NCBI RefSeq assembly: GCF_000379525.1
Contig: NZ_KB902502.1
Span: 1-64,000 of the forward strand
Source: Lamprocystis purpurea DSM 4197
GTDB taxonomy: Bacteria; Pseudomonadota; Gammaproteobacteria; Chromatiales; Chromatiaceae
Length of the DNA: 64,000 nucleotides
Direction of reading: 5' to 3'
This document shows, in pieces, positions 39,992 to 52,932 of the stretch. The stretch's first letter is position 1. The number at the start of each line of letters is the position of its first letter. The notes beneath the pieces are model-generated. The model was not told the origin of the DNA. It was given only the letters and a program-made list of their open reading frames with translations, and did not search any database. The position numbers and the translations under genes were made by a program.

Positions 39992-40023
39992 GGCGACAAC
40001 GATTCCACCGTGACCCACAGACG

Positions 40024-40506
40024 TCAGTTGTCGATCTTTTGATAGGTCCCGACCAGGGTCGCGTGGGTCAGGATGTGTTCATCCATGGCAAGCAGCAACT
40101 CGTCCTTTGACGGATAGCTCAAGGCAGCAGGCAGTCGGGTGTCCAGGGCGTACAGGCGAAAAAAATAGCGATGCCGGCCCACGGGCGGGCACGGCCCCCC
40201 ATAGCCGGTGCGTCCCCAGCTATTGAGCCCCTCGGCGCAGCCCGCGGGAAGCTCGGCGGGAGTCACCCCCGCCGCGAGTCGGTGCGTCGTCACCGGCACG
40301 TTGTACAGAATCCAGTGATCCCAGACCATCCGGGGCGCGGCCGGGTCTGGGGCATCCGGGTCGTCGATGATCAGGACCAGGCTCGCGGTATCATCCGGCA
40401 CGCCAACCCAGTAGATTTCCGGAGAGCAATCCTCCCCCTCACAGGTATACTTGGGCGGAATCTCACCACCGTCATCGAATGCTTCAGACTTGAGAACCAG
40501 AGTCAT
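40024..40506 (-). CDS. YbhB/YbcL-family (PEBP) protein
   Basis: The 160-residue protein has the PEBP/Raf-kinase-inhibitor-like pattern: PPKYTCEGEDCSPEIYWVGV, LVLIIDDPDAPDP, WDHWILYNVP and GRHRYFFRLYALD. No signal peptide is seen, so it is cytoplasmic. The family binds phospholipid-like ligands; function in bacteria is unclear. Confidence 0.9.
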   Translation of the reverse strand: MTLVLKSEAFDDGGEIPPKYTCEGEDCSPEIYWVGVPDDTASLVLIIDDPDAPDPAAPRMVWDHWILYNVPVTTHRLAAGVTPAELPAGCAEGLNSWGRTGYGGPCPPVGRHRYFFRLYALDTRLPAALSYPSKDELLLAMDEHILTHATLVGTYQKIDN

Positions 40507-40807
40507 TTTCTGCCTTCCGGTATGTGCTAAGGTAACCTAGTAGAATCATCATCAATGGATGGATATCGGGCGCCCCGCGGGGAGCCCCTAAGCAACGATG
40601 TGGGGTCAAAAATTCACGATTTAGTACCCGATGATCGACACGCCGGCCCTGACGCGGTGACCCCTCACCGCCGGGCCGAACGCCGAACCTGAATATAGAT
40701 CATGAGGCTGCAACGATGAAACAATTTGCGCCATACTGCGATCATCGGTTCATAGAGACAAAATCGCCCTAGAGACGGTTTTACCACTCCCTAGCTGTGC
40801 GTCCTTC
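40507..40807. other. Intergenic stretch, candidate sRNA locus
   Basis: No ORF is convincing. A strong plus-strand terminator follows at 40808-40833, but the genes on both sides are on the minus strand, so something non-coding may be transcribed rightward here. A TATAGA near 40694 is a possible -10 box without a clear -35. Confidence 0.4.
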
Positions 40808-40833
40808 GGCGGCCAAATGGCCGCCTTTTTTTT
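40808..40833 (+). terminator. Strong Rho-independent terminator without a gene
   Basis: Perfect 7-bp stem GGCGGCC / GGCCGCC with loop AAAT, followed by eight Ts. Read on the minus strand there is no T run, so it does not serve the minus-strand gene that ends at 40940. Confidence 0.85.
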
Positions 40834-40939
40834 CTTAAGCGTGGCGTTGGGGGTAGTGTATCGTCCAGCGTCGCCCCTGCGGCCATGGACCCAACCGTTT
40901 GGGCTTGGCTCCTGATTGCCCCCCGATCGGCCATGCCCC

Positions 40940-43420
40940 TCAGGCCGGGCGTCCAAAGCGAAACCGGTTGCCCGACTCCACCATCTCGCGGATGGCGCGC
41001 CAGGCCTGTTCGGCGTTGCCATCCCGCTCCAGGGCCGCCTCGTACAGCATGCGCAGTTCCAGGGGCAGGTCGGTACCGAAGGTCAGGGGGTTGTCGGTGT
41101 TGGCCAGGATCGGCAGCCGGTCCTTGAGTGCCAGCAGGGGGTGGTCCACCAGGGATGGGATACCGGTAATGGTGAGATTGCTCAGTGGGCAGGCCTCGAC
41201 CGCCACATGGCGCCGGGCGAGCAGGTCCACCAGATAGCCCTGGAGGTTGCGCAAACGCAGGGCCTCCTGTTCCCGATCGGCCTTGGTGGCCCGGAAGGGA
41301 TAGGGCTGGTGGGGCAAGGGGAACTCGTCCTCCCGGTCGAGCAGCCCCAGGTACCGCTCCAGCGCCCAATTGACATGGGGTTGGGTCCAGAGCCGGTCGC
41401 AGTCGCTCGCCCGGTAGCGGTCGACACCCGACCAGGCCACCGGAAAGCCGCGTGATCGCAGCACCAGGTTTGGGCAGTGGAGCGCGCAATAGAAGTCGTA
41501 CCACTCGCGGGCGGTGCGCGGCCGCTCCGGCGACTGGTCACCAGTGCCGAGCAGGGCCTCGCCCACCACGGCAATCTCCTGGGCGAGCCGCTCGCGCATC
41601 CCCGGGTCCATCGGCACCCGGCCGGTGGCCGCCAGCCCCCATTCCCACACCAGGTCGAACAACAGCCAGTCCAGTCGGCTCACAATCATCGGCACGCGCC
41701 CCTGCCACTCGCTCGGGTCCAGGCCCAGGGCCAGCCCATGGCCGACCCGGTCGCCTTCCTCCCAGGGGAAGAACTCCATGACCTCGCCGATGTGACGCAG
41801 CCCCTGGGCGAGGTGTACGAAATCCTCGCCCGCGTGGAAGGTGTAGCCGAAGCCCCGGCAACCCGGGCAGCGCGGGGCCAGGTGTTGCCGCCACCAGTCC
41901 CGCAACTCGACAAAGGCCGGCAGATAGAACCAATTCGGGCGTGCCAACTCGCGCCCGGCCACGTCCAGCCCCACCAGGAAGCGCGGCAGGCCGCGCGGGG
42001 CCTCGATCTCCATCAGGGTCTGCAGATCGCTGATGTGTTTGCGCAACTCCATCATGGCCCGGTCCACGCCGCCCCCCTTGGCAAGCGTGTCCCACTTCAC
42101 GGCGTGGACCACCAGCGACAGGCTGGCTCCCGCCCCGCCCCCGGCCTCCGGCCCGCCGGCCATGGTCTCGGCGACCTGGAGCATCTCATGGAGCACCGCA
42201 GGCGGGTCCGGCACGATGCGCAACTCCAGGTGGCGCAGCCGCCCGAGCGGGTTGAGGTGACGCATCAGTTCCGCCGGGTCCGCCTGGACCCGCTGACGCA
42301 GGGCCGTAATGGCCTTGGAGCGCTGATAGACGTCGGTGAAGAAGCCCAGGCCCTCGAGCCCCGGATCGTCAATGAAATGACGGTGGAAGCCCGCCCGCAC
42401 CCGGGCATAGAACCACCAGAGCGCATCGAATAGGGCCGGTAGTTCGGGGTCGGCATCGATGGCGACCCGTGACTCCACCAACAGCCAGGGCTCCTCCACC
42501 GGGGGCAGATTCAACTGGAGCCACAGGGACTGGAAACCGCGCAAGGTCTCGGTCCAGAAGAACTCGGGCTCTTCGTCGAGAAAGTCGTCGAGCCTCAGGA
42601 GGCCGTTGCGATCGAGACGCCGGCCAACCGCGAGGATGCCCCCCCAAAAGCCCCGCCAGCGGTTCAGGGCCAGCAGGGACAGGATGCGGCGCACCGCCGC
42701 GGCCATCGCCAGGAGCGGGGTATCGCGCGCCAGGGCATGCTGGGGACCGGGCTGATGCAGGAAAAACCGGCAATCCCGATCCAGCGCACCGAGCAGGTGT
42801 GGCCAAACGAACTCGGCGCGCAGTGCGGACCCGGCGTGCACATGACAATCGGCCAGCCCTGCCCCTCTGGGCTCCCCTTGGTCCAGCAGGTCGGACAGGG
42901 GGCGCATCGCCGCATCGTCCACCACCAGACCGGCGGCGATCAAGGGTCGCCGTGTCGCCGGCGGCAGGTCGGACACCAACAGGCTCGGCAACAAATCCGG
43001 TCCGACCCGCAGGCGCACCAGGTGGGCCAACTGTAGGGTCTCCAGCCGCGTCAGACCGAGCGCAAGAACATCTCCGCGGGGGCTGAGCTCCAGCCGGTCC
43101 CCGGCCGGGCGCAGGAAGCCGTTCGCGAGGCGCCGATAGTGGGTCGCAAGCCCCACCGGGTCGTCGGACCGCGGCCAGACCTGCGCCAGCAGGGCCTGGG
43201 CGAGTTCCTTGCCGATCCCATGCACGCGCTCGCGCTCGAACAGGTTCAGCCAGCGTTGCTCGATCGTCGCGGGATGCAGCGAGGGGTCTGGGGGACCGGC
43301 ATCGCCCTTGGGGATGAGCCGCACCAGGCCCGGCCGTAGAGGCCAGAGCCAGGCCTCGTCCTCGATCGGCAGGGTGGCGAGGCGGGCGAGCAGAAAGAGT
43401 CGGGAGTGGTCGACCGGCAT
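40940..43420 (-). CDS. Adenosine deaminase-like protein, RdrB-like (RADAR-type)
   Basis: The 826-residue protein is far longer than housekeeping adenosine deaminases (about 330-350) but keeps their active-site motifs in order: HxH at 193/195 (ADCHVHAGSA), FLVGLDVAGRE near 481-491 (GxDLAGxE), HAGED at 529-533, RVGHG at 558-562, VEACPLSN at 741-748 and NTDNP at 774-778 (usual NTDDP, with Asn instead of the second Asp). The first 185 residues and inserts of about 280 residues between the HxH and GLDVAG motifs are extra. Paired with a large P-loop ATPase upstream, it fits RdrB of the RADAR defence system. Last gene of the cluster. Confidence 0.75.
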   Translation of the reverse strand: MPVDHSRLFLLARLATLPIEDEAWLWPLRPGLVRLIPKGDAGPPDPSLHPATIEQRWLNLFERERVHGIGKELAQALLAQVWPRSDDPVGLATHYRRLANGFLRPAGDRLELSPRGDVLALGLTRLETLQLAHLVRLRVGPDLLPSLLVSDLPPATRRPLIAAGLVVDDAAMRPLSDLLDQGEPRGAGLADCHVHAGSALRAEFVWPHLLGALDRDCRFFLHQPGPQHALARDTPLLAMAAAVRRILSLLALNRWRGFWGGILAVGRRLDRNGLLRLDDFLDEEPEFFWTETLRGFQSLWLQLNLPPVEEPWLLVESRVAIDADPELPALFDALWWFYARVRAGFHRHFIDDPGLEGLGFFTDVYQRSKAITALRQRVQADPAELMRHLNPLGRLRHLELRIVPDPPAVLHEMLQVAETMAGGPEAGGGAGASLSLVVHAVKWDTLAKGGGVDRAMMELRKHISDLQTLMEIEAPRGLPRFLVGLDVAGRELARPNWFYLPAFVELRDWWRQHLAPRCPGCRGFGYTFHAGEDFVHLAQGLRHIGEVMEFFPWEEGDRVGHGLALGLDPSEWQGRVPMIVSRLDWLLFDLVWEWGLAATGRVPMDPGMRERLAQEIAVVGEALLGTGDQSPERPRTAREWYDFYCALHCPNLVLRSRGFPVAWSGVDRYRASDCDRLWTQPHVNWALERYLGLLDREDEFPLPHQPYPFRATKADREQEALRLRNLQGYLVDLLARRHVAVEACPLSNLTITGIPSLVDHPLLALKDRLPILANTDNPLTFGTDLPLELRMLYEAALERDGNAEQAWRAIREMVESGNRFRFGRPA

Positions 43421-43529
43421 GGGTCAGTCGCTGCCTCGGTAGGGGCTTGAGCCAGGATCGCGGACTGTGCCGGGATGGTTGGATTGCCTGGTCCAGGGCA
43501 GGCGGGTGCGCGGCACGGTCGGGGCGTCC

Positions 43530-45968
43530 TTAAGGGCTTGGGTCGCCCATGGGGGTTCCGATCGCGTCCGCGGAACCCGGCCCCACGGTGGGGGTGCCGT
43601 ACTCAGTGAACTCCTGGCCCGGAGCGTCGATGGCTCCAACCTCTGCGCTAGCGGCCCCAGCCAGGCGGATCCCGACCTGGAATGCGCGCCTCATCCGACT
43701 CCCCTTCTGCTGCTCAAAGACCTTAAGTTCGATCTCATCCACGAGGCCGCCGATGTTTTGGCGCAGGAGCGGGCGTTCTTGGGCCAACTCCCGCGCGGTG
43801 AGCCCCAGCACCAAGTCTTTCACTCGGGACGCGCTCAGTCCACAGGCGCGGAAGGGGCTGTTTCCGCCTTGCTCCGCACGCATCAGGAAGCGAAAGAGCC
43901 CAAGCTCCACCCACTCCGCAAGGATCCCATCCCCATCGGTGATGTCCTTGAAATAGGACCCTTGGAGTCGCCGCAGGATGGCATCGATCCCGAGGTTGGC
44001 CTGGGTCTCAGGCTCGAGCCGCCCGAGGGGCGCGGGCTCCTCCGCCAGGGGGGCCATGCGCCCAATCTTAATCGCCGCCTCCACCAAATGGAATAGAAAT
44101 AGCAGTTGCTGCTTCCCCATCGCCAGTCCCGGATCGAAGACAGCGACCTGATCCCAGTACCGGGTGAAGATGAGCCACTGGATTGGCCAGCGCCAGGCGG
44201 GCATTGGCAGACAATAGAAGCCGCCGGGGGACCCGCCTGCCACGGCCAGCGGATAGAAGGTCTCGAACAGTAGCCGGGTATCGCCGACATCCAGATCGAT
44301 CGGGCCTGTCGCCGCTGCCGTTGGCTCGACGGGGCCGAGTCGGTCGATACCGAGGCTCGGGAGATGGAGCCCGGGCAGGATGTCCGCCAGCTCTGGGCGT
44401 TGCAGATCGCGGAGCGCTAAGTAGCCCAGAGTCAGCGCGGGGGGCAGCAGGGCCGGGGTCTCGGCGCCCGATCCGGCGAAGATCGGGCGGCGGACCCTCA
44501 GCCCGATCTCATGGCCCGCGAAGAGATACAGGCGCGGGGTCCCTTCCACTGAGCCGGGGTAGGCACCGGGTGCCGGGCTCAGTACCCGCCATGGGGTTAT
44601 TTCGGTCGCCACCGCCGTGTTGGTCAATGACTGGGCGATAGCGCGTCCACCATCCGACGCCTCGTCGGCCTGGGATTGGGATGCGGCCAGTTGGTCATTC
44701 GCCAGATCCCAGACAAAGAGTCGGGCGAATCCGGTCAAGACCTCGCGTCGCGCTCGGTCCAAGTCTGGCGCCCCCTGGCCTGGGACGCGGCGCAGGACGA
44801 TGTCATAGGCCTGCTCCAGGAGTCGGGGATTCCCGCTCAGGACGGATGCGTAATGGGACAAGGTCGCAGTCCCCTTGATCGCCCAGTCGAGGCTCAGGAA
44901 GCGCCGCAGACCGATTCGATCCAGCAGATCCCCGAGGGTCGGGAGAGCGTCGTCGGGCCGAAAGGCGATACGCCCCTGCTCGTTCAGGGCGGTCAGACGG
45001 AAGCGCCCCTCATCGGGAAAGAACTTGGCGAGGAACTGAAAGGCCAGCCCCTGCGCGACCTCGTTCACCTCCCGGGGGCTGAACAACCGAGCGTCGGGGT
45101 CAGGCGTGTGCGACCAGTCCGGAAACATGGTCCGGGCATAGCGCGCCTTGGTGCAACGCAAGGCAAGCCGGTCGTCGGCGGTTACGAGCAGCACCAGGCG
45201 CGATAGAGACGGTGAGACGATGCGGATAAAGGTCATCACCTCGTCGAGGTACTCGGGCACCAGGTCGGTGTCGTCGATCGCCAGAAGCATCAGGGGGGGC
45301 CTCTTAGTGTCCTGGGGGCGGCCCCCGGCGCCAGCCAAGCGCCGGTCAGTCAGATTACGGACGAGCTGGTCGAGCCCCTCGGCAAAGCGCCGACCGCGAC
45401 TCAGGTAATGGAGCCTGAAACGCTGTTCCAGGGACCCTCCCCCGGCGGACTCGCCCCCGGATTGAAAGAGCCATCGAGCCTGCTCCGCCAGGTCGTGGAA
45501 AAGCTTGTTGAGGTCATCCGCGCCCTCTCGCCGGTGGCCCAGCCCAGTCGGCTGGGGCAGCCCCATCCACTCATGGCTCGCGCCCCCGGTAAGACGCTCG
45601 ACAAGAGGTTGCAGGGCAGCCAGAAACGAGTAGAGAACCCGATCCCCCGGCACGAAGCGGTGGGGATCGATGATCGGCAGGATAAGATCCCCCGGCGAGC
45701 GCTGCCGAATGTGCTCGAGAAGGGTGAGCAAGGCGCTGGTCTTGCCCGAGCCCCTGGGCCCGAAGATGCTGATCACGGGGTGGAACAGGAAGGGCTTGGA
45801 CCAGTGCTCGGCCGAGTTGCCGGGGCGCTCCCGCTGTTCGGTCTCCTCCAACTCGGCAAAGCGCAGCCGGTAGAGATCGAGGGTCGCCAGGGCGTCGTCG
45901 AGCCAGGGGAAACACTCGGGCTGCAGTACCCGGGCACCGCGAGCGAGTTTGGATGAAGGCGTCATCAT
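43530..45968 (-). CDS. P-loop ATPase, RdrA-like (RADAR-type)
   Basis: The 812-residue protein has Walker A at 70-78 (GPRGSGKTS), a Walker B region at 226-235 (LMLLAIDDTD) and a following strand LVLLVTADDRLAL that looks like a sensor segment of STAND/AAA-like ATPases. The C-terminal 500 residues have no recognised domain. No membrane segment. It lies 109 bases upstream of the adenosine deaminase-like gene and 85 bases downstream of the regulator gene. RADAR systems pair exactly such a large ATPase with a large deaminase; the identification rests on this context rather than sequence match. Confidence 0.65.
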   Translation of the reverse strand: MMTPSSKLARGARVLQPECFPWLDDALATLDLYRLRFAELEETEQRERPGNSAEHWSKPFLFHPVISIFGPRGSGKTSALLTLLEHIRQRSPGDLILPIIDPHRFVPGDRVLYSFLAALQPLVERLTGGASHEWMGLPQPTGLGHRREGADDLNKLFHDLAEQARWLFQSGGESAGGGSLEQRFRLHYLSRGRRFAEGLDQLVRNLTDRRLAGAGGRPQDTKRPPLMLLAIDDTDLVPEYLDEVMTFIRIVSPSLSRLVLLVTADDRLALRCTKARYARTMFPDWSHTPDPDARLFSPREVNEVAQGLAFQFLAKFFPDEGRFRLTALNEQGRIAFRPDDALPTLGDLLDRIGLRRFLSLDWAIKGTATLSHYASVLSGNPRLLEQAYDIVLRRVPGQGAPDLDRARREVLTGFARLFVWDLANDQLAASQSQADEASDGGRAIAQSLTNTAVATEITPWRVLSPAPGAYPGSVEGTPRLYLFAGHEIGLRVRRPIFAGSGAETPALLPPALTLGYLALRDLQRPELADILPGLHLPSLGIDRLGPVEPTAAATGPIDLDVGDTRLLFETFYPLAVAGGSPGGFYCLPMPAWRWPIQWLIFTRYWDQVAVFDPGLAMGKQQLLFLFHLVEAAIKIGRMAPLAEEPAPLGRLEPETQANLGIDAILRRLQGSYFKDITDGDGILAEWVELGLFRFLMRAEQGGNSPFRACGLSASRVKDLVLGLTARELAQERPLLRQNIGGLVDEIELKVFEQQKGSRMRRAFQVGIRLAGAASAEVGAIDAPGQEFTEYGTPTVGPGSADAIGTPMGDPSP

Positions 45969-46053
45969 GGATGCATCCGTGTCGGTTGGAACGGTGTCGG
46001 CGCGGGGTCTCAGTGGGATGCGGGGACGAATCGGCGCCCACGAGGACCTTGGA

Positions 46054-46857
46054 TCAGGACCGCGTCTCGCTTTGCCGGTCCTCGATCTTCTGGATCCAAC
46101 TGCGATAGGTGTTGTACGCGATCCCCAGGGCGACCGCCCGCTCGCGCTGGTTGCCGATGCTGTCCCGCACCATCGCCCGATCCAGGAGGTCCATCAATTC
46201 CAGTTGACCCAGGTCCCAGAGGCGGGCATCCGGGTCCCCCTTTTGGCGCAGGTAGATCCCGGCGAGGCGCGTCTGCAGCGCCGGACAGGCCCCGCCCGCC
46301 AACAGGATCACCAGTGCCCCCAATAGCTTGCGTGCCACCAGGTCGGAGAAGGGTTTGGGGTATACCCAGGTGGCGCCATGCCGGAGCAGGAAGCGGGTCC
46401 AGGGCAGGGTCGGGGTGGTGAAGCGGGCGAAGTTGGTGCCCACGGCCACCGCCGGGACGCCAAGGCCCAGGCCCCGCAGCCGCTGCAGCTCGCGCAGCAC
46501 CCAGAGCCCACCGACCCGTTTCAGGTCCGGGCATTCCCAGAACCGCTCCATATCCGCCTCGTCGGTGACACGATCGCCCAGATCTTTCACCGCCACCTCC
46601 TCGGCCCCGGAGAGCCCCAGATCGAGCAGCAGGAGCGGGGCGCCCAGGTCCAGGGCCTCCCACAGTGCATCCTGTGCCTCCACCGCGTTGTGCTTGAACA
46701 CGGCAGACTCTTGCATCAGGCGCGGACGCACCCGGTCGCGCTGCAGCCACTCCAGTGCCCCGGTGGCTTCGATCCAGAGATGCTCGGCGGTCAGTTCCTC
46801 CTTGACGCGTCCAAAGTCGTCCGGGTCGTTCTCGATGACTGGGATCAGGATGTCCAT
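46054..46857 (-). CDS. Response-regulator-like protein with C-terminal HTH
   Basis: The N-terminus (MDILIPVIENDPDDFGRVKE) and the strand APLLLLDLGLSG with Asp79 resemble a receiver domain; VPAVAVGTNFAR supplies the Thr and GATWVYPKPF the Lys-Pro of the family. About 50 residues are inserted after the phosphorylation site. The last 40 residues (NQRERAVALGIAYNTYRSWI) form a helix-turn-helix, so it may bind DNA. It starts 30 bases after the kinase gene stop. It probably receives phosphate from that kinase and controls the downstream pair. Confidence 0.7.
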   Translation of the reverse strand: MDILIPVIENDPDDFGRVKEELTAEHLWIEATGALEWLQRDRVRPRLMQESAVFKHNAVEAQDALWEALDLGAPLLLLDLGLSGAEEVAVKDLGDRVTDEADMERFWECPDLKRVGGLWVLRELQRLRGLGLGVPAVAVGTNFARFTTPTLPWTRFLLRHGATWVYPKPFSDLVARKLLGALVILLAGGACPALQTRLAGIYLRQKGDPDARLWDLGQLELMDLLDRAMVRDSIGNQRERAVALGIAYNTYRSWIQKIEDRQSETRS

Positions 46858-46887
46858 GGGGTGCGGTCTCTTTTGGGTAATTGGGTG

Positions 46888-49197
46888 TCAGAATTGCAGA
46901 CTGGTTTGGCCCGGGTTGATCGGGAAGCGCAAGGTGACTTGTGTGCCGACTCCGGGTTGCGAGTCCAACTCCACCCCGCCGGTCTGCCCATCCGCGCCGA
47001 CCAGAAGGTTGAGGAAATAGGTGGCCAGGGGCAGGCCGAGCCCGAGCCGGGCACCGCTGCGCGCGCCGCCGTGGCGTTCCAGCGAGAGCCCCTGACCAAG
47101 TCGTGCCGACTCGGCTACCCGGGCCAGTCGCGTCCGCAGTGCCTGGAGTTCGGCCTCACTCATGCCCCCCGCCCGATCCTCGACCCGGATCAGCACAGCG
47201 CCAGGCGTCGGCTCCATCCCGACCCGAATCGACCCACGGCCGGGTTCGGACTGGACCATCTCGGGTGTCAGCGCCTTAAACGCATTGTCGATGGGCACAA
47301 AGACCGCATGGAAGCTCGCCGGGCGAAAACCGCGGACCTGGGGGGTCCCCGCCAGGCCCGCCAGGTCTGCCAGATCAGGAAGCTCCAGACGCACCTGATC
47401 CCGGACCCGCTCGAATGACTCCTGCTGAAAGGCCCGATCGTCCACCAGTGCCGCGAAGACTAGATCGACCTCGGCGAGTAGGACGCCGAGGTCCAGGGAC
47501 TCGGTCTCCAGCGCCCTCGAGTTGGGCAGCCGGAACACGTCCAGGGCCTTGAGCTGGGTGTCGAGCAGGTTGGCGATCCCCTTGATCCGCGCCGCCAGGG
47601 CCGGTACCTCATGGGGCTTGGCCCGGCCCAGCCGGCTGGCAACATTCAGAAGCGGGGTCACGGTGGTCTTCGGCAGGTTGTGACCGAAGAAAGCCGAGAG
47701 CCCGCGCACGAACTCGAAACGCCCGAACTCGCGGCTGAAATGATGGATCAACAACCCATTGCGCAGATCCTTGGACTGGGCCAGCAGAGCCCGTTGCAGC
47801 CCGGCCCGCAATTCCGGAACCAAAGGCAAGCCGGCACGGGGCCAGGCGACCTGGGCGACCAGCGGGATCGACACGCCGTCTCCACCCAGGGTCTCTGCAT
47901 GTACAGGGATAAGCAACAGCGTGTCCCCCCGCTCACCCTCACAGAACAGCCCCTCAAAGCGCTCGAGTTCGGACAGCTCGTCGTCGATGGGCCAGTGACA
48001 GGGCAGGCCACTTGCCAGCACCTGCGCCAGGTGCTGGGTTGGGACCAACGCTCCGGCGATGGCCGTTAGGCGATCCGACAGCGGCGATGCCCCAGGGACT
48101 TCCCCCACCGAGCGGCGCTGCTCCCAGTCCAGGGCATAGCCATAGCTCCCGTCTTCCTGTTGGAGGAGAAAGGTCAGGACCAGGGGGTAGTTGTCGAGCA
48201 CATAGCCGAGCATGGCGGCCAGCTCGGGGGCCTGGTTGTCCGACCCCAACCAATCCCCCCCGATGACGGCCATGCGGGCATCGAACAAAACCTGATCCAA
48301 GATACTGGTGCGCTCCCGGTCCCGCGGCACCCCCCCGGCACCCGACCGGGCCTTGCGTTTGCCGGCGAGGATGCGCGCCCCCTCCTGGATGAAGCGTTCG
48401 AGTGTCTTCAGACTCCAACTGGCCGGGCGAGGCAGTGGCCCGACGGTGAACACCTCGATCGGGACCATATCCGCCTCCGGAGGCTCTTCCGGGGCCTTGG
48501 GGCCTTCGCGGTCCAGGTCCGGCAGATAAACCTGACCCCAGGCGATCCACTGGGAACGGCCGGCAAAGGCCGTCTCGTCCGCCGTGAGCCCCAAGGCTCG
48601 GGCATCGGTCTGGCCTCCATCGCCTGCGGGCGGGGGCCGCCAATCACGATAGGGGGCCAAAACCTCTTGCGTGTACGGCGAGAATTCGCGGCGCGAACCT
48701 GAACCTTCGGCTGGCCCCAGCCGCACCCACCAGAGGCTGGCCCCCAGAAAAGTTTGAATGCCCTGATCCGTGATAACCCAGAGTGCCTCCCAGCCGGTCA
48801 TTGGCAACCCCTGGAGCAGTTCGCCCGCCCAGTCCCGCAGGTCCTGCAGCTCCCCCTCTTCTTCGGCGATCCGGTGCTCGGTGGGGAGCTCCAGGCGATA
48901 CTCGATCCAGGGGTTGAATGCCTCACTGTCCACCCTCGCGGGCCGGGTCCCCGAGATGCGGTAGGCCGAGGTCAGGCGGCGGCGCGAAGACCGCTGGGGC
49001 GGGCTCGGGGTGTCCGGGACATCGCTATCCTCGACCCCCAGGCCGCCGCGCACCCCGAGCACAGTACCTCCGTACCAGTGGACCCTCAGACTCTCGGGGT
49101 CTACCCGCCCCGGCAGGTTGACCCGGAACGCGAACGCCCCTGCCTTAGCCCTGTCCTTCTGTTCCGAGTTCAATGCGCGATAGATTCGTCCGCTCAT
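46888..49197 (-). CDS. Soluble histidine kinase-like protein
   Basis: The 769-residue protein has no membrane helix. A possible H-box His506 sits in SAFFGHNLPKTTVTPLLN. The C-terminal HATPase domain shows the N-box (PIDNAFKAL, 635-643), G1 (EDRAGGMS, 673-680) and G2 (GARLGLGLPLA, 715-725). The 500-residue N-terminal part has no domain I recognise and could be a cytoplasmic sensor. First gene of a four-gene minus-strand cluster with a response regulator, ATPase and deaminase. A cytoplasmic sensor of infection is an attractive but unproven role. Confidence 0.7.
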   Translation of the reverse strand: MSGRIYRALNSEQKDRAKAGAFAFRVNLPGRVDPESLRVHWYGGTVLGVRGGLGVEDSDVPDTPSPPQRSSRRRLTSAYRISGTRPARVDSEAFNPWIEYRLELPTEHRIAEEEGELQDLRDWAGELLQGLPMTGWEALWVITDQGIQTFLGASLWWVRLGPAEGSGSRREFSPYTQEVLAPYRDWRPPPAGDGGQTDARALGLTADETAFAGRSQWIAWGQVYLPDLDREGPKAPEEPPEADMVPIEVFTVGPLPRPASWSLKTLERFIQEGARILAGKRKARSGAGGVPRDRERTSILDQVLFDARMAVIGGDWLGSDNQAPELAAMLGYVLDNYPLVLTFLLQQEDGSYGYALDWEQRRSVGEVPGASPLSDRLTAIAGALVPTQHLAQVLASGLPCHWPIDDELSELERFEGLFCEGERGDTLLLIPVHAETLGGDGVSIPLVAQVAWPRAGLPLVPELRAGLQRALLAQSKDLRNGLLIHHFSREFGRFEFVRGLSAFFGHNLPKTTVTPLLNVASRLGRAKPHEVPALAARIKGIANLLDTQLKALDVFRLPNSRALETESLDLGVLLAEVDLVFAALVDDRAFQQESFERVRDQVRLELPDLADLAGLAGTPQVRGFRPASFHAVFVPIDNAFKALTPEMVQSEPGRGSIRVGMEPTPGAVLIRVEDRAGGMSEAELQALRTRLARVAESARLGQGLSLERHGGARSGARLGLGLPLATYFLNLLVGADGQTGGVELDSQPGVGTQVTLRFPINPGQTSLQF

Positions 49198-49465
49198 CCG
49201 AGTCCACCCTTTGCTGACGGATCAAGCTGATCCACCGTGAGACACATTAGAGACCCGAAATCCGCATCGCGATCACGTCTGCGCCGCGTGACCGGCCGCG
49301 GTAGAGAGAGTTGAGCCGAGACCCAGGCTCAACAAGCGATAAAACTATCCTATTCTTAGACCTTTCGATCAGAAGGGAAATGCGGCTAGCATTGCCTGGC
49401 AAACAAGGATACCGGCCCTCGCAAGGACATGCGCCCAATAAACAACGGCACGGCATGGAACATCG
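49198..49465. other. Upstream region of the kinase-ATPase-deaminase cluster
   Basis: AT-rich relative to the surroundings, especially 49335-49385. It should hold the cluster promoter on the minus strand; no clear box pair is visible and the open frame across it is not convincing. Confidence 0.45.
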
Positions 49466-49744
49466 ATGACCATCTTCGTACGACGGGTTAAGGAACATCC
49501 GGGCTCGGGAGGGGCGAGCCGCAGGCGCTCCGACATATTTGCCGGCGACCCAGGCAAGTCCAAGGGCATTTGGGAAAAGATTGGCAGCTACACTCCCGGG
49601 GCGAATGGTGATCCGGACTCGGTCACGATCGACTGCGACACGTTGGACAAGTGCATCCGTGCGGGCCACCGCCCCTCGCCCCAGGTGCGCAAGCTCGCCA
49701 AGACCCATTGCCCCGGTATCGACCTGAACCCCGAAACCGATTGA
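49466..49744 (+). CDS. Hypothetical 92-aa protein
   Basis: The product starts MTIFVRRVKEHPGSGGASRR and ends with a Cys-containing half (TIDCDTLDKCIRAGHRP, AKTHCPGIDL). GGAA precedes the ATG by 6 bases. It reads away from the kinase gene, so it may share a divergent promoter with the defence-like cluster. No family recognised. Confidence 0.45.
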   Translation: MTIFVRRVKEHPGSGGASRRRSDIFAGDPGKSKGIWEKIGSYTPGANGDPDSVTIDCDTLDKCIRAGHRPSPQVRKLAKTHCPGIDLNPETD

Positions 49745-49749
49745 CCTGA

Positions 49750-50499
49750 TCACGTCGGCGCACCGCCGCCTTGATCGGGTTTCGGGAGCGATGATGCCAC
49801 CGTCACCCCCGCCGCCAGGGAGGCGACCAGTTCCTCGTGCTGATAGCACAGGTAGCGGTTCGCCTCACGCACCATCAGGACCGCGACCACGAGCAGGGGC
49901 AGCGCCATGAGCCCCAGCATCGGACTGCCGCCCAGTGGCGGTAACCCGCCATAGGCAATCCCCGCCAGCACCGCGGCCCACAGAATGGCTGCACTGGCAA
50001 GCCCGTCGCAGGTGGCACACATCACCCAGTAACGTAGCACCAGGGCCAGCGAGGCTGCGCGGGTCGGGTCATGGCGCAGCTCGGCCCAGAGCCGGGTGTA
50101 GAGCCTCCAAGGGCGGCGCAACGCATCATCCGCCGACCCGGTCAAATAGGGCGCAAAGCGCGGGTCCCCATCCAGCCCATGGGCGCGAAGGATGTCGGGC
50201 AGCACGCGCCCGCCGTCGAGGGGCGACTCGCGGGTCCAGAGGCGCCGGTTGTAGGCCGCACGCAACCAACGCCCGACGACAAAGGCCGCCAAGCCGCTCC
50301 CATAGACCAGCACCAGGGTGACCAGGACGGCGAACCAGCCGCCCGGCAGGCTTGGCAGGGCGATCCCCAGGCTGGTTGTTAGAAAGAACAGTGCAGCCAG
50401 GCTCAGGGTGCCGGCCACTAGGAAGGAAAGGTCGAGGATGTCGAAAAATCCGGCGATTCGCGCGAGCACTGCGCCCAAGGTGCTTTCGAGATCCTTCAT
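49750..50499 (-). CDS. Hypothetical membrane protein
   Basis: The 249-residue protein has two N-terminal helices (FLVAGTLSLAALFFLTTSLG and WFAVLVTLVLVYGSGLAAFV), a cytoplasmic middle of about 80 residues and two C-terminal helices (ASAAILWAAVLAGIAYGGL, LGLMALPLLVVAVLMV). No family recognised. It lies upstream of the kinase gene on the same strand but 550 bases away with an ORF between. RADAR loci often carry a membrane accessory protein, so a link is possible but not shown. Confidence 0.6.
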   Translation of the reverse strand: MKDLESTLGAVLARIAGFFDILDLSFLVAGTLSLAALFFLTTSLGIALPSLPGGWFAVLVTLVLVYGSGLAAFVVGRWLRAAYNRRLWTRESPLDGGRVLPDILRAHGLDGDPRFAPYLTGSADDALRRPWRLYTRLWAELRHDPTRAASLALVLRYWVMCATCDGLASAAILWAAVLAGIAYGGLPPLGGSPMLGLMALPLLVVAVLMVREANRYLCYQHEELVASLAAGVTVASSLPKPDQGGGAPT

Positions 50500-50783
50500 C
50501 TGCGACCCCCAGTCGAGTGAGTTCCAACCACGGCGAGTCCCGAGAGGTTATCGACGACCCGCGACACGAATTGCTGCGGCGCAGTTTCTAAACCTGACAG
50601 GTGCCGCACCGCGCAGTTCGCGTGATACTAAGCCGCCTCGGCCTTCTGGGCAACCCGACCTGTTGCGCCCTGCCGCCGGCAGCTTCCTGATCGCCCGGAG
50701 CGGGCGCCTCGCTCCCGCTGCCGGCTCCCAACCAATCCGCACGGCACCCCTGAGCGCGACGGGGCGCGACGGGCGAGTTACGG
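50500..50783. other. Intergenic stretch without a gene
   Basis: No convincing ORF or repeat; GC-rich. Frames here lack start signals. Confidence 0.5.
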
Positions 50784-50789
50784 TATAAT
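50784..50789 (+). promoter_or_regulatory. Putative -10 box of the EF-G-like gene
   Basis: A perfect TATAAT about 98 bases before the ATG. No good -35 hexamer lies at the right distance, so the promoter may depend on an activator or be weak. Confidence 0.4.
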
Positions 50790-50886
50790 TTCAGTTTCCT
50801 GATTAGACCGATGGGGATATGACGATCTACTCGCCGTTTCCCCTTAGGCGCATTCCCCCACGCCACTCCACAAAACAGGATCACCG

Positions 50887-52932
50887 ATGTCTGAATACAA
50901 CGCCGAGGACGTCCGCAACATCGCTCTGGTCGGACATGCCGGCAGCGGAAAAACCACACTGGTCGAGGCACTGCTCGCCGCCACGGGCGTCATTCCCGTC
51001 CCCGGCAGCGTCGCCAAAGGCACCACGGTATGCGATTTCGACCCGCTGGAGAAGGAGTTGCAGCACTCGCTCGACTCCGCCATCACCAGTGTCGACGTCC
51101 ACGGCAAGCACATCAACCTGATCGACACCCCCGGCTACCCGGACTTCCTGGGCCGCAGCGTCTCCGTACTGCCGGCCGTCGAGACCGCCGCCGTGGTCAT
51201 CAACGCCCAGGCCGGGATCGAATCAGTCACCCAGCGCCTCATGAAGGCACTCGATCACCGGCACCTGTGCCGGATGATCATCGTCAATCAGATCGATGCG
51301 CCGGATCTGGATCTGGGTGCGCTCACCGCCCGCATCCGCGAGACCTTCGGCGCCGAGTGCCTGCCCATCAATCTGCCGGCCGACCGCGGCACGCGGGTGA
51401 TCGACTGCTTTTTCCAACCCAGCGGTGAGGGGGCGGACTTTTCGTCCGTGGCCGAGGCCCATGGCCACATCATCGATCAGGTCGTGGAAATGGATGAGGC
51501 GCTGATGGATGTCTATCTGGAACAGGGGGAGGATCTCGCTCCCGAGCAACTCCACGACCCCTTCGAGACGGCGCTGCGCGAAGGCCACCTCATCCCCATT
51601 TGCTATTGCTCCGCCGGCACCGGGGTCGGCATCCCGGAGCTGCTGGAGATCATGGTCCGCCTGATGCCTAACCCGTCCGAGGGGAATCCGCCCGCCTACC
51701 TGAAGGGCGAAGGGGCCGCCATGGAGCCGGTGCGCGTGTCGCCTGACCCGACCAAACACGCGCTGGCCCATTGCTTCAAGATCATCAACGACCCCTTCCG
51801 CGGCAAGCTGGGCATTTTCCGCATCCACCAGGGGCGCATCAGCACCAACAGCCAGCTTTACGTCGGCGACGCCCGCAAGCCGTTCAAGGTCAACCACCTG
51901 TTCAGGCTCCAGGGCAACGAGCAGATCGAGGTCGCCGAGGGCGTCCCCGGCGACATCCTGGCGGTCTCGCGGGTGGACGACATCCACTTCGATGCCGTGT
52001 TGCACGATTCGCACGACGAGGATCACTACCACCTGACCACCATGGAGTGCCCGGTGCCCCTGTTCGGGCTGGCCATCACCCCAACCAAGCGCGGGGATGA
52101 ACAGAAGCTCAACGACGCGCTGCACAAACTCCAGTCCGAGGACCCCTGCCTCCATATCGAGCATCACGCCGCAACTAACGAGACCATCATGCGCGGCTTG
52201 GGCGAATTGCACCTCAAGGTCCTGCTGCGGCGGCTCTCGGAGCAGTTCCATGTGGATGTGGACACCCGTCCGCCGAGTATCCCCTATCGTGAAACCATCA
52301 CGGCCAAGGCCGATGGACACCACCGCCACAAGAAGCAGACCGGCGGTGCCGGCCAGTTCGGTGAAGTCTATCTGCGGATCGAGCCGCTGGAGCGCGGGGG
52401 CGGATTCGAGTTCGTGGACGCCACCGTGGGCGGCGTCATCCCCGGCAACTTCATCCCCTCGATCGAAAAGGGCGTGCGTCAGGTATTGGCCGACGGCGCC
52501 ATCGCGGGGTACCCATTGCAAGATGTCCGGGTATCGGTGTACGACGGCAAATACCATCCGGTGGACTCCAAGGACATCGCCTTCTCGACCGCCGGGCGCA
52601 AGGCCTTCATCGACGCCGTCGACAAGGCCAAACCGGTGATTCTGGAGCCGATCGTCAAGATCCGGATCAGTGCACCGGACTCCTGCATGGGCGATCTGGC
52701 GGGCGACCTATCCGGTCGGCGCGGGCGGATCAGCGGCAGCGAATCCCCGAGCCAGGGGCGCATCGACATCGACGGCGAGGTACCGCTGGCCGAACTCTCC
52801 GGCTATGACGCCCGACTGAAGGCGCTCACCGGGGGTGAGGGGACCTACGGGATCGAACTGAGCCACTACGAGGCGGTCCCGGCAAGCATTCAGAAGCAAC
52901 TGGCGGACGCCTATCAACGCAGCGAAGACTAA
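50887..52932 (+). CDS. Elongation factor G-like GTPase
   Basis: The 681-residue protein has the EF-G layout: G domain with P-loop GHAGSGKT, DTPGYPDF, and domains II-V (FKIINDPFRGKLGIFRIHQG; QTGGAGQFGEVYLRIEPLER; ending DAYQRSED). The G4 motif reads NQID where EF-G has NKxD. It is shorter than canonical FusA and stands alone rather than next to rpsL/rpsG and tuf, so it is the EF-G2-type paralogue, whose role differs from normal translocation. AGGA lies 7 bases before the ATG. Confidence 0.9.
   Translation: MSEYNAEDVRNIALVGHAGSGKTTLVEALLAATGVIPVPGSVAKGTTVCDFDPLEKELQHSLDSAITSVDVHGKHINLIDTPGYPDFLGRSVSVLPAVETAAVVINAQAGIESVTQRLMKALDHRHLCRMIIVNQIDAPDLDLGALTARIRETFGAECLPINLPADRGTRVIDCFFQPSGEGADFSSVAEAHGHIIDQVVEMDEALMDVYLEQGEDLAPEQLHDPFETALREGHLIPICYCSAGTGVGIPELLEIMVRLMPNPSEGNPPAYLKGEGAAMEPVRVSPDPTKHALAHCFKIINDPFRGKLGIFRIHQGRISTNSQLYVGDARKPFKVNHLFRLQGNEQIEVAEGVPGDILAVSRVDDIHFDAVLHDSHDEDHYHLTTMECPVPLFGLAITPTKRGDEQKLNDALHKLQSEDPCLHIEHHAATNETIMRGLGELHLKVLLRRLSEQFHVDVDTRPPSIPYRETITAKADGHHRHKKQTGGAGQFGEVYLRIEPLERGGGFEFVDATVGGVIPGNFIPSIEKGVRQVLADGAIAGYPLQDVRVSVYDGKYHPVDSKDIAFSTAGRKAFIDAVDKAKPVILEPIVKIRISAPDSCMGDLAGDLSGRRGRISGSESPSQGRIDIDGEVPLAELSGYDARLKALTGGEGTYGIELSHYEAVPASIQKQLADAYQRSED

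What the first reader, a model, noticed from the sequence alone, without database searches (positions are those of the whole stretch)
40940..49197. Two-component-linked RADAR-like defence cluster
Seen: four same-strand genes in order encode a soluble HATPase protein with a candidate H-box His, a receiver-like protein with C-terminal HTH, an 812-aa P-loop ATPase and an 826-aa adenosine deaminase-like protein that keeps the HxH, HAGE, RxGHG and NTDxP motifs. Known: RADAR systems pair a large ATPase (RdrA) with a large adenosine deaminase (RdrB), sometimes with a membrane accessory protein. Inferred: this is a RADAR variant in which a kinase/regulator pair senses infection or controls expression. 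I know of no description of such a link.
Basis: partly seen in the sequence, partly recalled or inferred. Interest (0 to 1): 0.95.

Follow-up and report, generated by a model that had tools for sequence, protein, structure and literature searches.

The report
RADAR-like defence island with kinase genes
A 9.9-kb block present in this bacterium but missing from six close relatives carries a very divergent version of the phage-defence pair RADAR together with an orphan sensor-kinase-like gene, a possible regulator gene and a membrane-protein gene, which may be how this copy is switched on.

Summary
The four genes exist as described. The 812-aa ATPase and 826-aa deaminase are true, very divergent relatives of RdrA and RdrB: profiles built without the window hit both, the deaminase keeps its zinc and catalytic residues, and the 20 best PDB fold matches of the ATPase model are all RdrA chains. 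Both score far below curated RADAR cut-offs. The kinase protein has a real HATPase domain; the 'receiver' rests on motif reading alone. The kinase-regulator pair has no relative in the genomes searched and adjoins no other RADAR-like pair among 90 loci, so the four-gene order does not recur. But two close relatives have a clean empty site: the insertion (40834-50753) holds these four genes, a 249-aa membrane-protein gene and little else, so they seem to have arrived as one unit. Verdict: a new variant of a known kind. Control of the deaminase by the kinase-regulator pair is plausible, unproven and seen once.

The parts
40940..43420 (-). 826-aa RdrB-like adenosine-deaminase-fold protein (ADA826), predicted nucleotide deaminase effector
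   Evidence: NCBIfam RdrB E 3e-31 (108.6 bits, cut-off 800); PADLOC RdrB 6e-25; PDB E. coli RdrB 8fnw E 5e-16; HMM of the group around annotated RdrB (L006), window left out, E 2e-50; active-site residues conserved
43530..45968 (-). 812-aa RdrA-like AAA+ ATPase (ATP812)
   Evidence: HMM of the group around annotated RdrA (L006), window left out, E 4e-11, wider HMM 2e-39; AF2 model (pLDDT 65, pTM 0.68) best matches RdrA chains, Foldseek E 8e-11, VIA Z 21.1
46054..46857 (-). 267-aa putative receiver-HTH protein (RR267); assignment by motif reading only
   Evidence: E9, D79, T141, K168 in receiver order (sequence); no Pfam or PDB match for the N-terminal part; weak HTH_Tnp_1 E 0.037; own genome only among 210 genomes of the order
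46888..49197 (-). 769-aa histidine-kinase-like protein (HK769): unknown N-terminal ~470 aa, candidate phospho-His H506, HATPase 636-760
   Evidence: Pfam HATPase_c E 3e-8, 5.5e-9 on the C-terminal 300 aa; only weak matches to the HATPase part in 210 order genomes and 299 phylum genomes; none in plasmids or phages
49750..50499 (-). 249-aa multi-pass membrane protein (U249), candidate new RADAR accessory
   Evidence: 4-5 hydrophobic segments; relative directly upstream of a RADAR-like ATPase in L062, E 1.7e-27, 33% identity; family otherwise rare
49198..49749 (.). 552-bp spacer between U249 and HK769; holds a doubtful 92-aa plus-strand ORF (49466-49744); possible control region of the operon
   Evidence: no sigma-70 consensus found in 40500-51000
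40834..50753 (.). inserted island, 9.92 kb: U249, HK769, RR267, ATP812, ADA826 and the doubtful 92-aa ORF
   Evidence: window 40833 and 50754 are about 40 bp apart in two same-genus genomes (L116, L117); four more same-genus genomes aligned also lack it

Best explanation
A horizontally gained five-gene defence island. The ATPase and deaminase are a divergent RADAR-type pair: an RdrA-like AAA+ ring docks on an RdrB-like assembly and, on infection, lets it deaminate ATP and dATP to ITP and dITP, poisoning the nucleotide pool of the infected cell. The kinase-like protein senses a cytosolic cue and controls the DNA-binding protein RR267 by phosphotransfer; RR267 sets the expression of the HK-RR-ATPase-deaminase operon from the 552-bp spacer, keeping a toxic enzyme low until needed. 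U249 is a membrane accessory, playing the part that SLATT or Csx27 proteins play in other RADAR loci. Shown: the genes, the RdrA/RdrB homology, the conserved catalytic residues, the single insertion, and the second U249-RADAR neighbourhood. Inferred: defence, ATP deamination, phosphotransfer, transcriptional control, the role of U249.
For: RdrA/RdrB homology by profiles that leave out the window, by PDB profile search with ATPases outside the annotated RADAR group, window included, and by fold. Adjacent ATPase-deaminase pair in 77 of 87 deaminase loci including the window. The insertion holds these genes and is absent from six of six same-genus genomes aligned. HK-RR-ATPase-deaminase on one strand with 30, 85 and 109-bp gaps. 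U249 relative directly upstream of a RADAR-like ATPase in L062, while the family is absent from 273 other genomes of the class and from 35 of 36 RADAR-like genomes. RADAR biochemistry, and RdrB toxicity without infection, from PMC9994260 (abstract, passages and sections 6, 8, 14 read).
Against: The kinase-regulator pair is next to no other RADAR-like pair fetched (90 loci). RR267 is not confirmed as a receiver by any profile or model. No consensus promoter was found. The ATPase-deaminase gap of 109 bp is larger than in most relatives: four of 77 are larger. N777 departs from the usual D, so the substrate may differ. One genome only; absence in relatives could in principle be loss rather than gain here.
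Confidence: 0.5

Rival explanations
1. The ATPase and deaminase are a self-contained RADAR-like pair, and the kinase and regulator are passengers that arrived with the island but control something else, or nothing.
For: No other RADAR-like pair fetched has them (90 loci); the pair has few recognisable two-component features beyond the HATPase.
Against: They sit 30 and 85 bp from the next gene in the same operon-like run, and the insertion holds little else.
Confidence: 0.27
2. U249, HK769 and RR267 form a second, separate defence system that merely neighbours the RADAR-like pair.
For: Defence genes cluster: L062 carries an AbiLii/RloB gene just upstream of its U249 relative. A 552-bp spacer separates U249 from HK769.
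Against: The U249 relative in L062 sits directly before a RADAR-like ATPase with no kinase between, which ties U249 to RADAR rather than to HK769.
Confidence: 0.1
3. The receiver reading is wrong: HK769 uses its HATPase fold as a nucleotide sensor, without phosphotransfer, and RR267 is an adaptor or DNA-binding partner of the RdrA-like ring rather than a response regulator.
For: No profile finds a receiver or DHp domain; RR267 shows only a weak HTH match.
Against: E9, D79, T141 and K168 occur in the right order and context for a receiver (sequence reading).
Confidence: 0.25
4. The deaminase is a metabolic or signalling-nucleotide enzyme, not a defence effector.
For: N777 instead of D in the active-site motif; curated RdrB cut-off missed by far.
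Against: Conserved pairing with an RdrA-like ATPase across phyla, RdrA fold, island gained by insertion, a Csx27-like and a weak SLATT-like accessory in relatives.
Confidence: 0.07

Closest known systems
RADAR (RdrA-RdrB) anti-phage system
   Same: AAA+ ATPase of RdrA fold next to a large adenosine deaminase with the RdrB zinc tetrad and catalytic Glu; order ATPase then deaminase.
   Different: 16-22% identity to the plasmid-borne relatives aligned, including the annotated pair of L006 at 19% each; far below NCBIfam cut-offs; extra kinase-like and regulator-like genes; U249 in place of SLATT or Csx27.
Unlabelled RADAR-like clade in Bacillota, Myxococcota, Acidobacteriota, Planctomycetota and others
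   Same: Same ATPase-deaminase pair; the window's deaminase groups with the Myxococcota/Acidobacteriota/Planctomycetota set (27 rows, SH-aLRT 97).
   Different: The window's deaminase is a very long branch (3.17; place unsure); no relative fetched has the kinase and regulator.
Detocs (defence two-component systems)
   Same: Idea of a two-component-type sensor tied to an enzyme that destroys the adenine nucleotide pool (one-sentence description in PMC9966839).
   Different: Detocs effectors are ATP nucleosidases, not deaminases; no PADLOC match of HK769 or RR267 to any defence model at E<=1. Other Detocs details are recalled.

Membership tests
RADAR | RdrA-type AAA+ ATPase | tested here: met
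   HMM of 10 ATPases around annotated RdrA (L006), window left out, E 3.9e-11; all 20 Foldseek matches with E<=0.001 are RdrA; VIA Z 21.1, rmsd 8.8 over 507 residues, against 11.8 for the best other ATPase. C-terminal half of the model is low confidence.
RADAR | RdrB-type deaminase with zinc tetrad and catalytic Glu | tested here: met
   HMM of 13 deaminases around annotated RdrB (L006), window left out, E 2.2e-50; H193, H195, H529, H561, E532 against E. coli H152, H154, H498, H530, E501 (PMC9994260); N777 is unusual. Not folded here.
RADAR | Adjacent same-strand rdrA then rdrB | tested here: met
   43530-45968 then 40940-43420, gap 109 bp.
RADAR | Score above curated NCBIfam equivalog cut-offs for RdrA (600) and RdrB (800) | tested here: not met
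   12.6 and 108.6 bits. Of nine other RdrB-like proteins scored, eight get 116-188 bits and only L006 passes with 970. So it is not filed as an RdrA/RdrB equivalog, only as RADAR-like.
RADAR | Heptamer-dodecamer assembly, ATP to ITP conversion, phage protection | not testable with these tools
   Needs biochemistry.
RADAR | Membrane accessory of SLATT or Csx27 type (some variants) | tested here: inconclusive
   U249 matches neither by PADLOC nor by profile comparison with one Csx27-like and one SLATT-like protein, but it is a membrane protein with a relative at another RADAR-like locus.
Two-component system | HATPase domain of the kinase | tested here: met
   Pfam HATPase_c E 3.1e-8, 34.5 bits, cut-off 26.4.
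Two-component system | DHp domain with phospho-accepting His | tested here: inconclusive
   No Pfam HisKA-type match; H506 is a candidate by reading only.
Two-component system | Receiver domain with phospho-accepting Asp | tested here: inconclusive
   No Pfam match, no PDB match, model unusable; motif order only.
Detocs | ATP nucleosidase (PNP) effector in a two-component defence operon | tested here: not met
   No PNP domain among the Pfam matches at E<=1 of the four proteins and U249; no PADLOC match at E<=1 for HK769 or RR267.

The most novel reading that the evidence does not exclude
A RADAR-type nucleotide deaminase gated by its own kinase and regulator, with a new family of membrane accessory: a defence machine whose trigger, unknown for RADAR, enters through an identifiable sensor protein.
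Probability: 0.35. Interest if true: 0.78.

Novelty: new variant of a known kind. Interest (0 to 1): 0.55.

Why it matters
What activates RADAR is stated as unknown by its structural study (PMC9994260, discussion read). A version that carries its own candidate sensor kinase and regulator gives a handle on that question. U249 adds a possible third type of membrane partner, and the survey suggests that RADAR-like pairs extend well beyond what curated models label.

Tried and rejected
Recurrence of the four-gene order: tblastn of HK769 and RR267 on 90 related loci gave nothing better than E 0.15 and 0.95; phmmer without filters on their called ORFs nothing better than 0.22 and 2.3. A motif scan flagged nine HATPase-like ORFs besides HK769. 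Five of these nine, plus four other neighbours, were scanned in Pfam: of the nine scanned, only L017 (PAS kinase, two ORFs downstream, same strand) and L053 (opposite strand) are histidine kinases, neither like HK769; the other three flagged ones were false hits. The four flagged ORFs left (L017_0, L037_16, L053_15, L064_0) were not scanned. The upstream genes printed looked unrelated by eye.

HK769 matches in other genomes were only weak hits to its HATPase part; the one read, L093, is a CheA-like protein by my reading. A hand-built receiver profile failed because the seed search returned one row. A receiver pattern of mine did not match RR267 itself, so the test was void. Both are dropped. 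Single-sequence folding of RR267 was useless. No meaningful PDB sequence match for ATP812 alone (two chance hits). Viral-contig scans with HK769, RR267, U249 and ATP812 found no relatives. Plasmid searches with ATP812, HK769, U249, its L062 relative and RR267 found nothing. Rfam found nothing in 40000-52000. The 92-aa ORF in the spacer had only weak matches (E>=0.003) in 4 of 54 other genomes, so its status is open. Exact direct or inverted repeats between the island ends: one of 8 bp, no more. Profile hits of A5 to hemagglutinin chains and others are taken as chance. The weak U249 match in the class of L062 (L124) has no RADAR-like gene in its 3.3 kb.

Of 90 loci, L039, L050, L064 and L070 were left out of the tree for lack of a deaminase ORF of 560 aa or more. 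The ten loci of 87 without a full ATPase look like contig ends or split or masked ORFs in the ORF table, but were not checked one by one. One search counted 83 of 87 with looser rules, including doubtful ORFs in L083 and L086; 77 of 87 is used instead. In the sets named after the annotated pair of L006 (10 ATPases, 13 deaminases) only L006 bears a RADAR annotation; the rest were chosen by their place in the tree, and L005 scores only 111 bits with PADLOC RdrB. One search timed out and was rerun in lighter form, where the ATPase profile-profile comparison printed no result.

Full report
WHAT IS THERE. Five minus-strand genes lie in window 40940-50499: U249 (49750-50499), HK769 (46888-49197), RR267 (46054-46857), ATP812 (43530-45968), ADA826 (40940-43420). 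Gaps are 552, 30, 85 and 109 bp. All five have coding-like GC by codon position.

THE EFFECTOR PAIR. ADA826 matches the NCBIfam RdrB model (E 3e-31, 108.6 bits against a cut-off of 800), two PADLOC RdrB models, Pfam A_deaminase and E. coli RdrB in the PDB (8fnw, E 5e-16). ATP812 alone gives only weak RdrA hits (E 0.033 and 0.094). I therefore gathered relatives: plasmid records, 80 genome loci and 5 viral-contig loci. HMMs that leave out the window hit it clearly: the set around the annotated RADAR pair of L006 (10 ATPases, 13 deaminases, only L006 itself annotated) gives E 3.9e-11 for ATP812 and 2.2e-50 for ADA826, and the wider set gives 2.2e-39 and 1.3e-87. A profile of 50 ATPases, the window and 49 genome loci but no plasmid or viral row, finds RdrA of E. 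coli (8e-19) and of S. suis (3e-7) as its best PDB matches. The model of ATP812 (mean pLDDT 65, pTM 0.68, AAA+ part good, C-terminal half poor) gives 20 Foldseek matches with E<=0.001, all RdrA chains (TM-scores about 0.3 over the full length); VIA-align gives Z 21.1, rmsd 8.8 over 507 residues for RdrA and 11.8 for the next protein, BrxC.

Zinc and catalytic residues of RdrB, known for E. coli as H152, H154, H498, H530 and E501 (PMC9994260, passage), correspond to H193, H195, H529, H561 and E532; H195, H529, H561 and E532 are in 84 of 84 aligned proteins, H193 in 83 (three of 87 rows left out). The residue after D776 is N where 75 of 82 have D, so the substrate should not be taken for granted.

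HOW COMMON IS THE PAIR. A full ATPase lies upstream on the same strand in 77 of 87 deaminase loci, the window included; four of the 90 loci fetched were left out for short or missing deaminase ORFs. The window's deaminase is a long branch beside Myxococcota, Acidobacteriota, Planctomycetota and Thermodesulfobacteriota forms (SH-aLRT 97; long branch, place unsure). Within the order and class of the host no other genome matches ADA826: 1 of 210 and 1 of 369, itself each time. Of nine other RdrB-like proteins scored, eight get 116-188 bits with the NCBIfam RdrB model, while the annotated RdrB of L006 gets 970. Relatives carry known kinds of RADAR accessory: a Csx27-like protein in L036 and a weak SLATT match in L005 (below cut-off; annotated SLATT in the record). 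SLATT and Csx27 as RADAR accessories: PMC11676413, passage.

THE KINASE AND REGULATOR. HK769 has a HATPase domain, a 470-aa N-terminal part without any match and a candidate phospho-His at H506. RR267 has E9, D79, T141 and K168 in receiver order and an HTH-like end, but no profile confirms a receiver. No relative of either was found beyond weak matches to the HATPase part: HK769 in 210 order genomes and 299 phylum genomes, RR267 in 210 order genomes, both in plasmids, phages and viral contigs. None of the 90 RADAR-like loci shows them within the flanks fetched. Among nine neighbour ORFs scanned in Pfam, two are histidine kinases (L017 downstream, L053 opposite strand), both unlike HK769.

ONE INSERTION. 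Six same-genus genomes were aligned with the window. In L116 and L117 the sequences matching window 40833 and 50754 are about 40 bp apart, so 40834-50753 is an insertion holding the five genes and a doubtful 92-aa ORF. The other four lack the island too; one (L121) has a different insert there, with a 1653-aa ORF. The seventh same-genus genome, G144, was not aligned but has no ADA826 or HK769 match. Loss in all the others is possible but needs more events. This is the best evidence that the kinase and regulator belong with the pair.

U249. It has 4-5 hydrophobic segments, no Pfam or PADLOC match and no profile similarity to the one Csx27-like and one SLATT-like protein compared. Its one clear relative (33% identity, E 1.7e-27) is the gene directly before the RADAR-like ATPase in L062, an uncultured Clostridia genome. 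The family is otherwise rare: 1 of 274 genomes of the class, the host itself; 2 of 291 genomes of the class of L062, one of them L062's own and the other a weak match in a frame with stops; 1 of 36 RADAR-like genomes, L062's own. Two independent neighbourhoods of a rare protein with RADAR-like pairs are unlikely by chance, but it is two cases, and L062 also has an AbiLii/RloB gene just before it.

MECHANISM. RADAR converts ATP and dATP to ITP and dITP after infection, and overexpressed RdrB is toxic without phage (PMC9994260, sections read). A dedicated kinase and DNA-binding regulator would fit the need to keep such an enzyme quiet until wanted. That study says the trigger of RADAR is unknown and suggests the RdrA C-terminus as sensor. 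ATP812 is among the shorter ATPases (812 aa, median 991), but relatives as short show no such kinase, so a sensor role handed over to HK769 is not implied.

LITERATURE. Searches for RdrA with RdrB, for RADAR or adenosine deaminase with histidine kinase, for RADAR accessories, for ATP nucleosidase with response regulator and for two-component or histidine-kinase terms in defence and conflict systems brought up no description of this link in the held library (open-licence PMC only). I saw the listings, and passages of PMC7159879, PMC8195603, PMC12839542, PMC13092281, PMC10952713 and PMC9966839. Subscription papers were not searchable. A figure legend in PMC13092281 lists HATPase and REC among domains of predicted defence systems, so such domains in defence are not new in themselves. 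Receiver domains acting apart from kinases in conflict systems are discussed in PMC8195603 (passage).

VERDICT. A real, divergent RADAR-like pair on an acquired island, with a candidate new membrane accessory and an orphan kinase-regulator pair. The tie of that pair to RADAR rests on one insertion in one genome.

Noticed in passing
window 40741-40833 (+): A sequence of about 76-93 bp ending in a strong intrinsic terminator is 93-99% identical in two same-genus genomes (L119, L121) where its flanks do not align or are 67-83% alike, and is present in all six aligned; looks like an unannotated small RNA, with the island inserted just after its terminator. No Rfam match.
   Followed up: partly
L121 2380-7341: A different same-genus genome has another insert, with a 1653-aa ORF of secreted-repeat look, at the same site, which suggests an insertion hot spot.
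   Followed up: no
L008 11632-12459; L018 11194-11982: Two acidobacterial RADAR-like loci have a TauD-type dioxygenase-like gene overlapping the deaminase end by 4 bp (Pfam TauD E 6e-6 and 0.0018, below cut-off); a similar-sized gene, not scanned, overlaps in L035.
   Followed up: partly
   Followed up: partly
window 49466-49744 (+): A 92-aa plus-strand ORF in the spacer between U249 and HK769 with somewhat coding-like GC3 (0.76) and only weak matches elsewhere.
   Followed up: partly
L016 6055-18841: Oceanirhabdus carries two RADAR-like ATPase-deaminase pairs within 13 kb.
   Followed up: no
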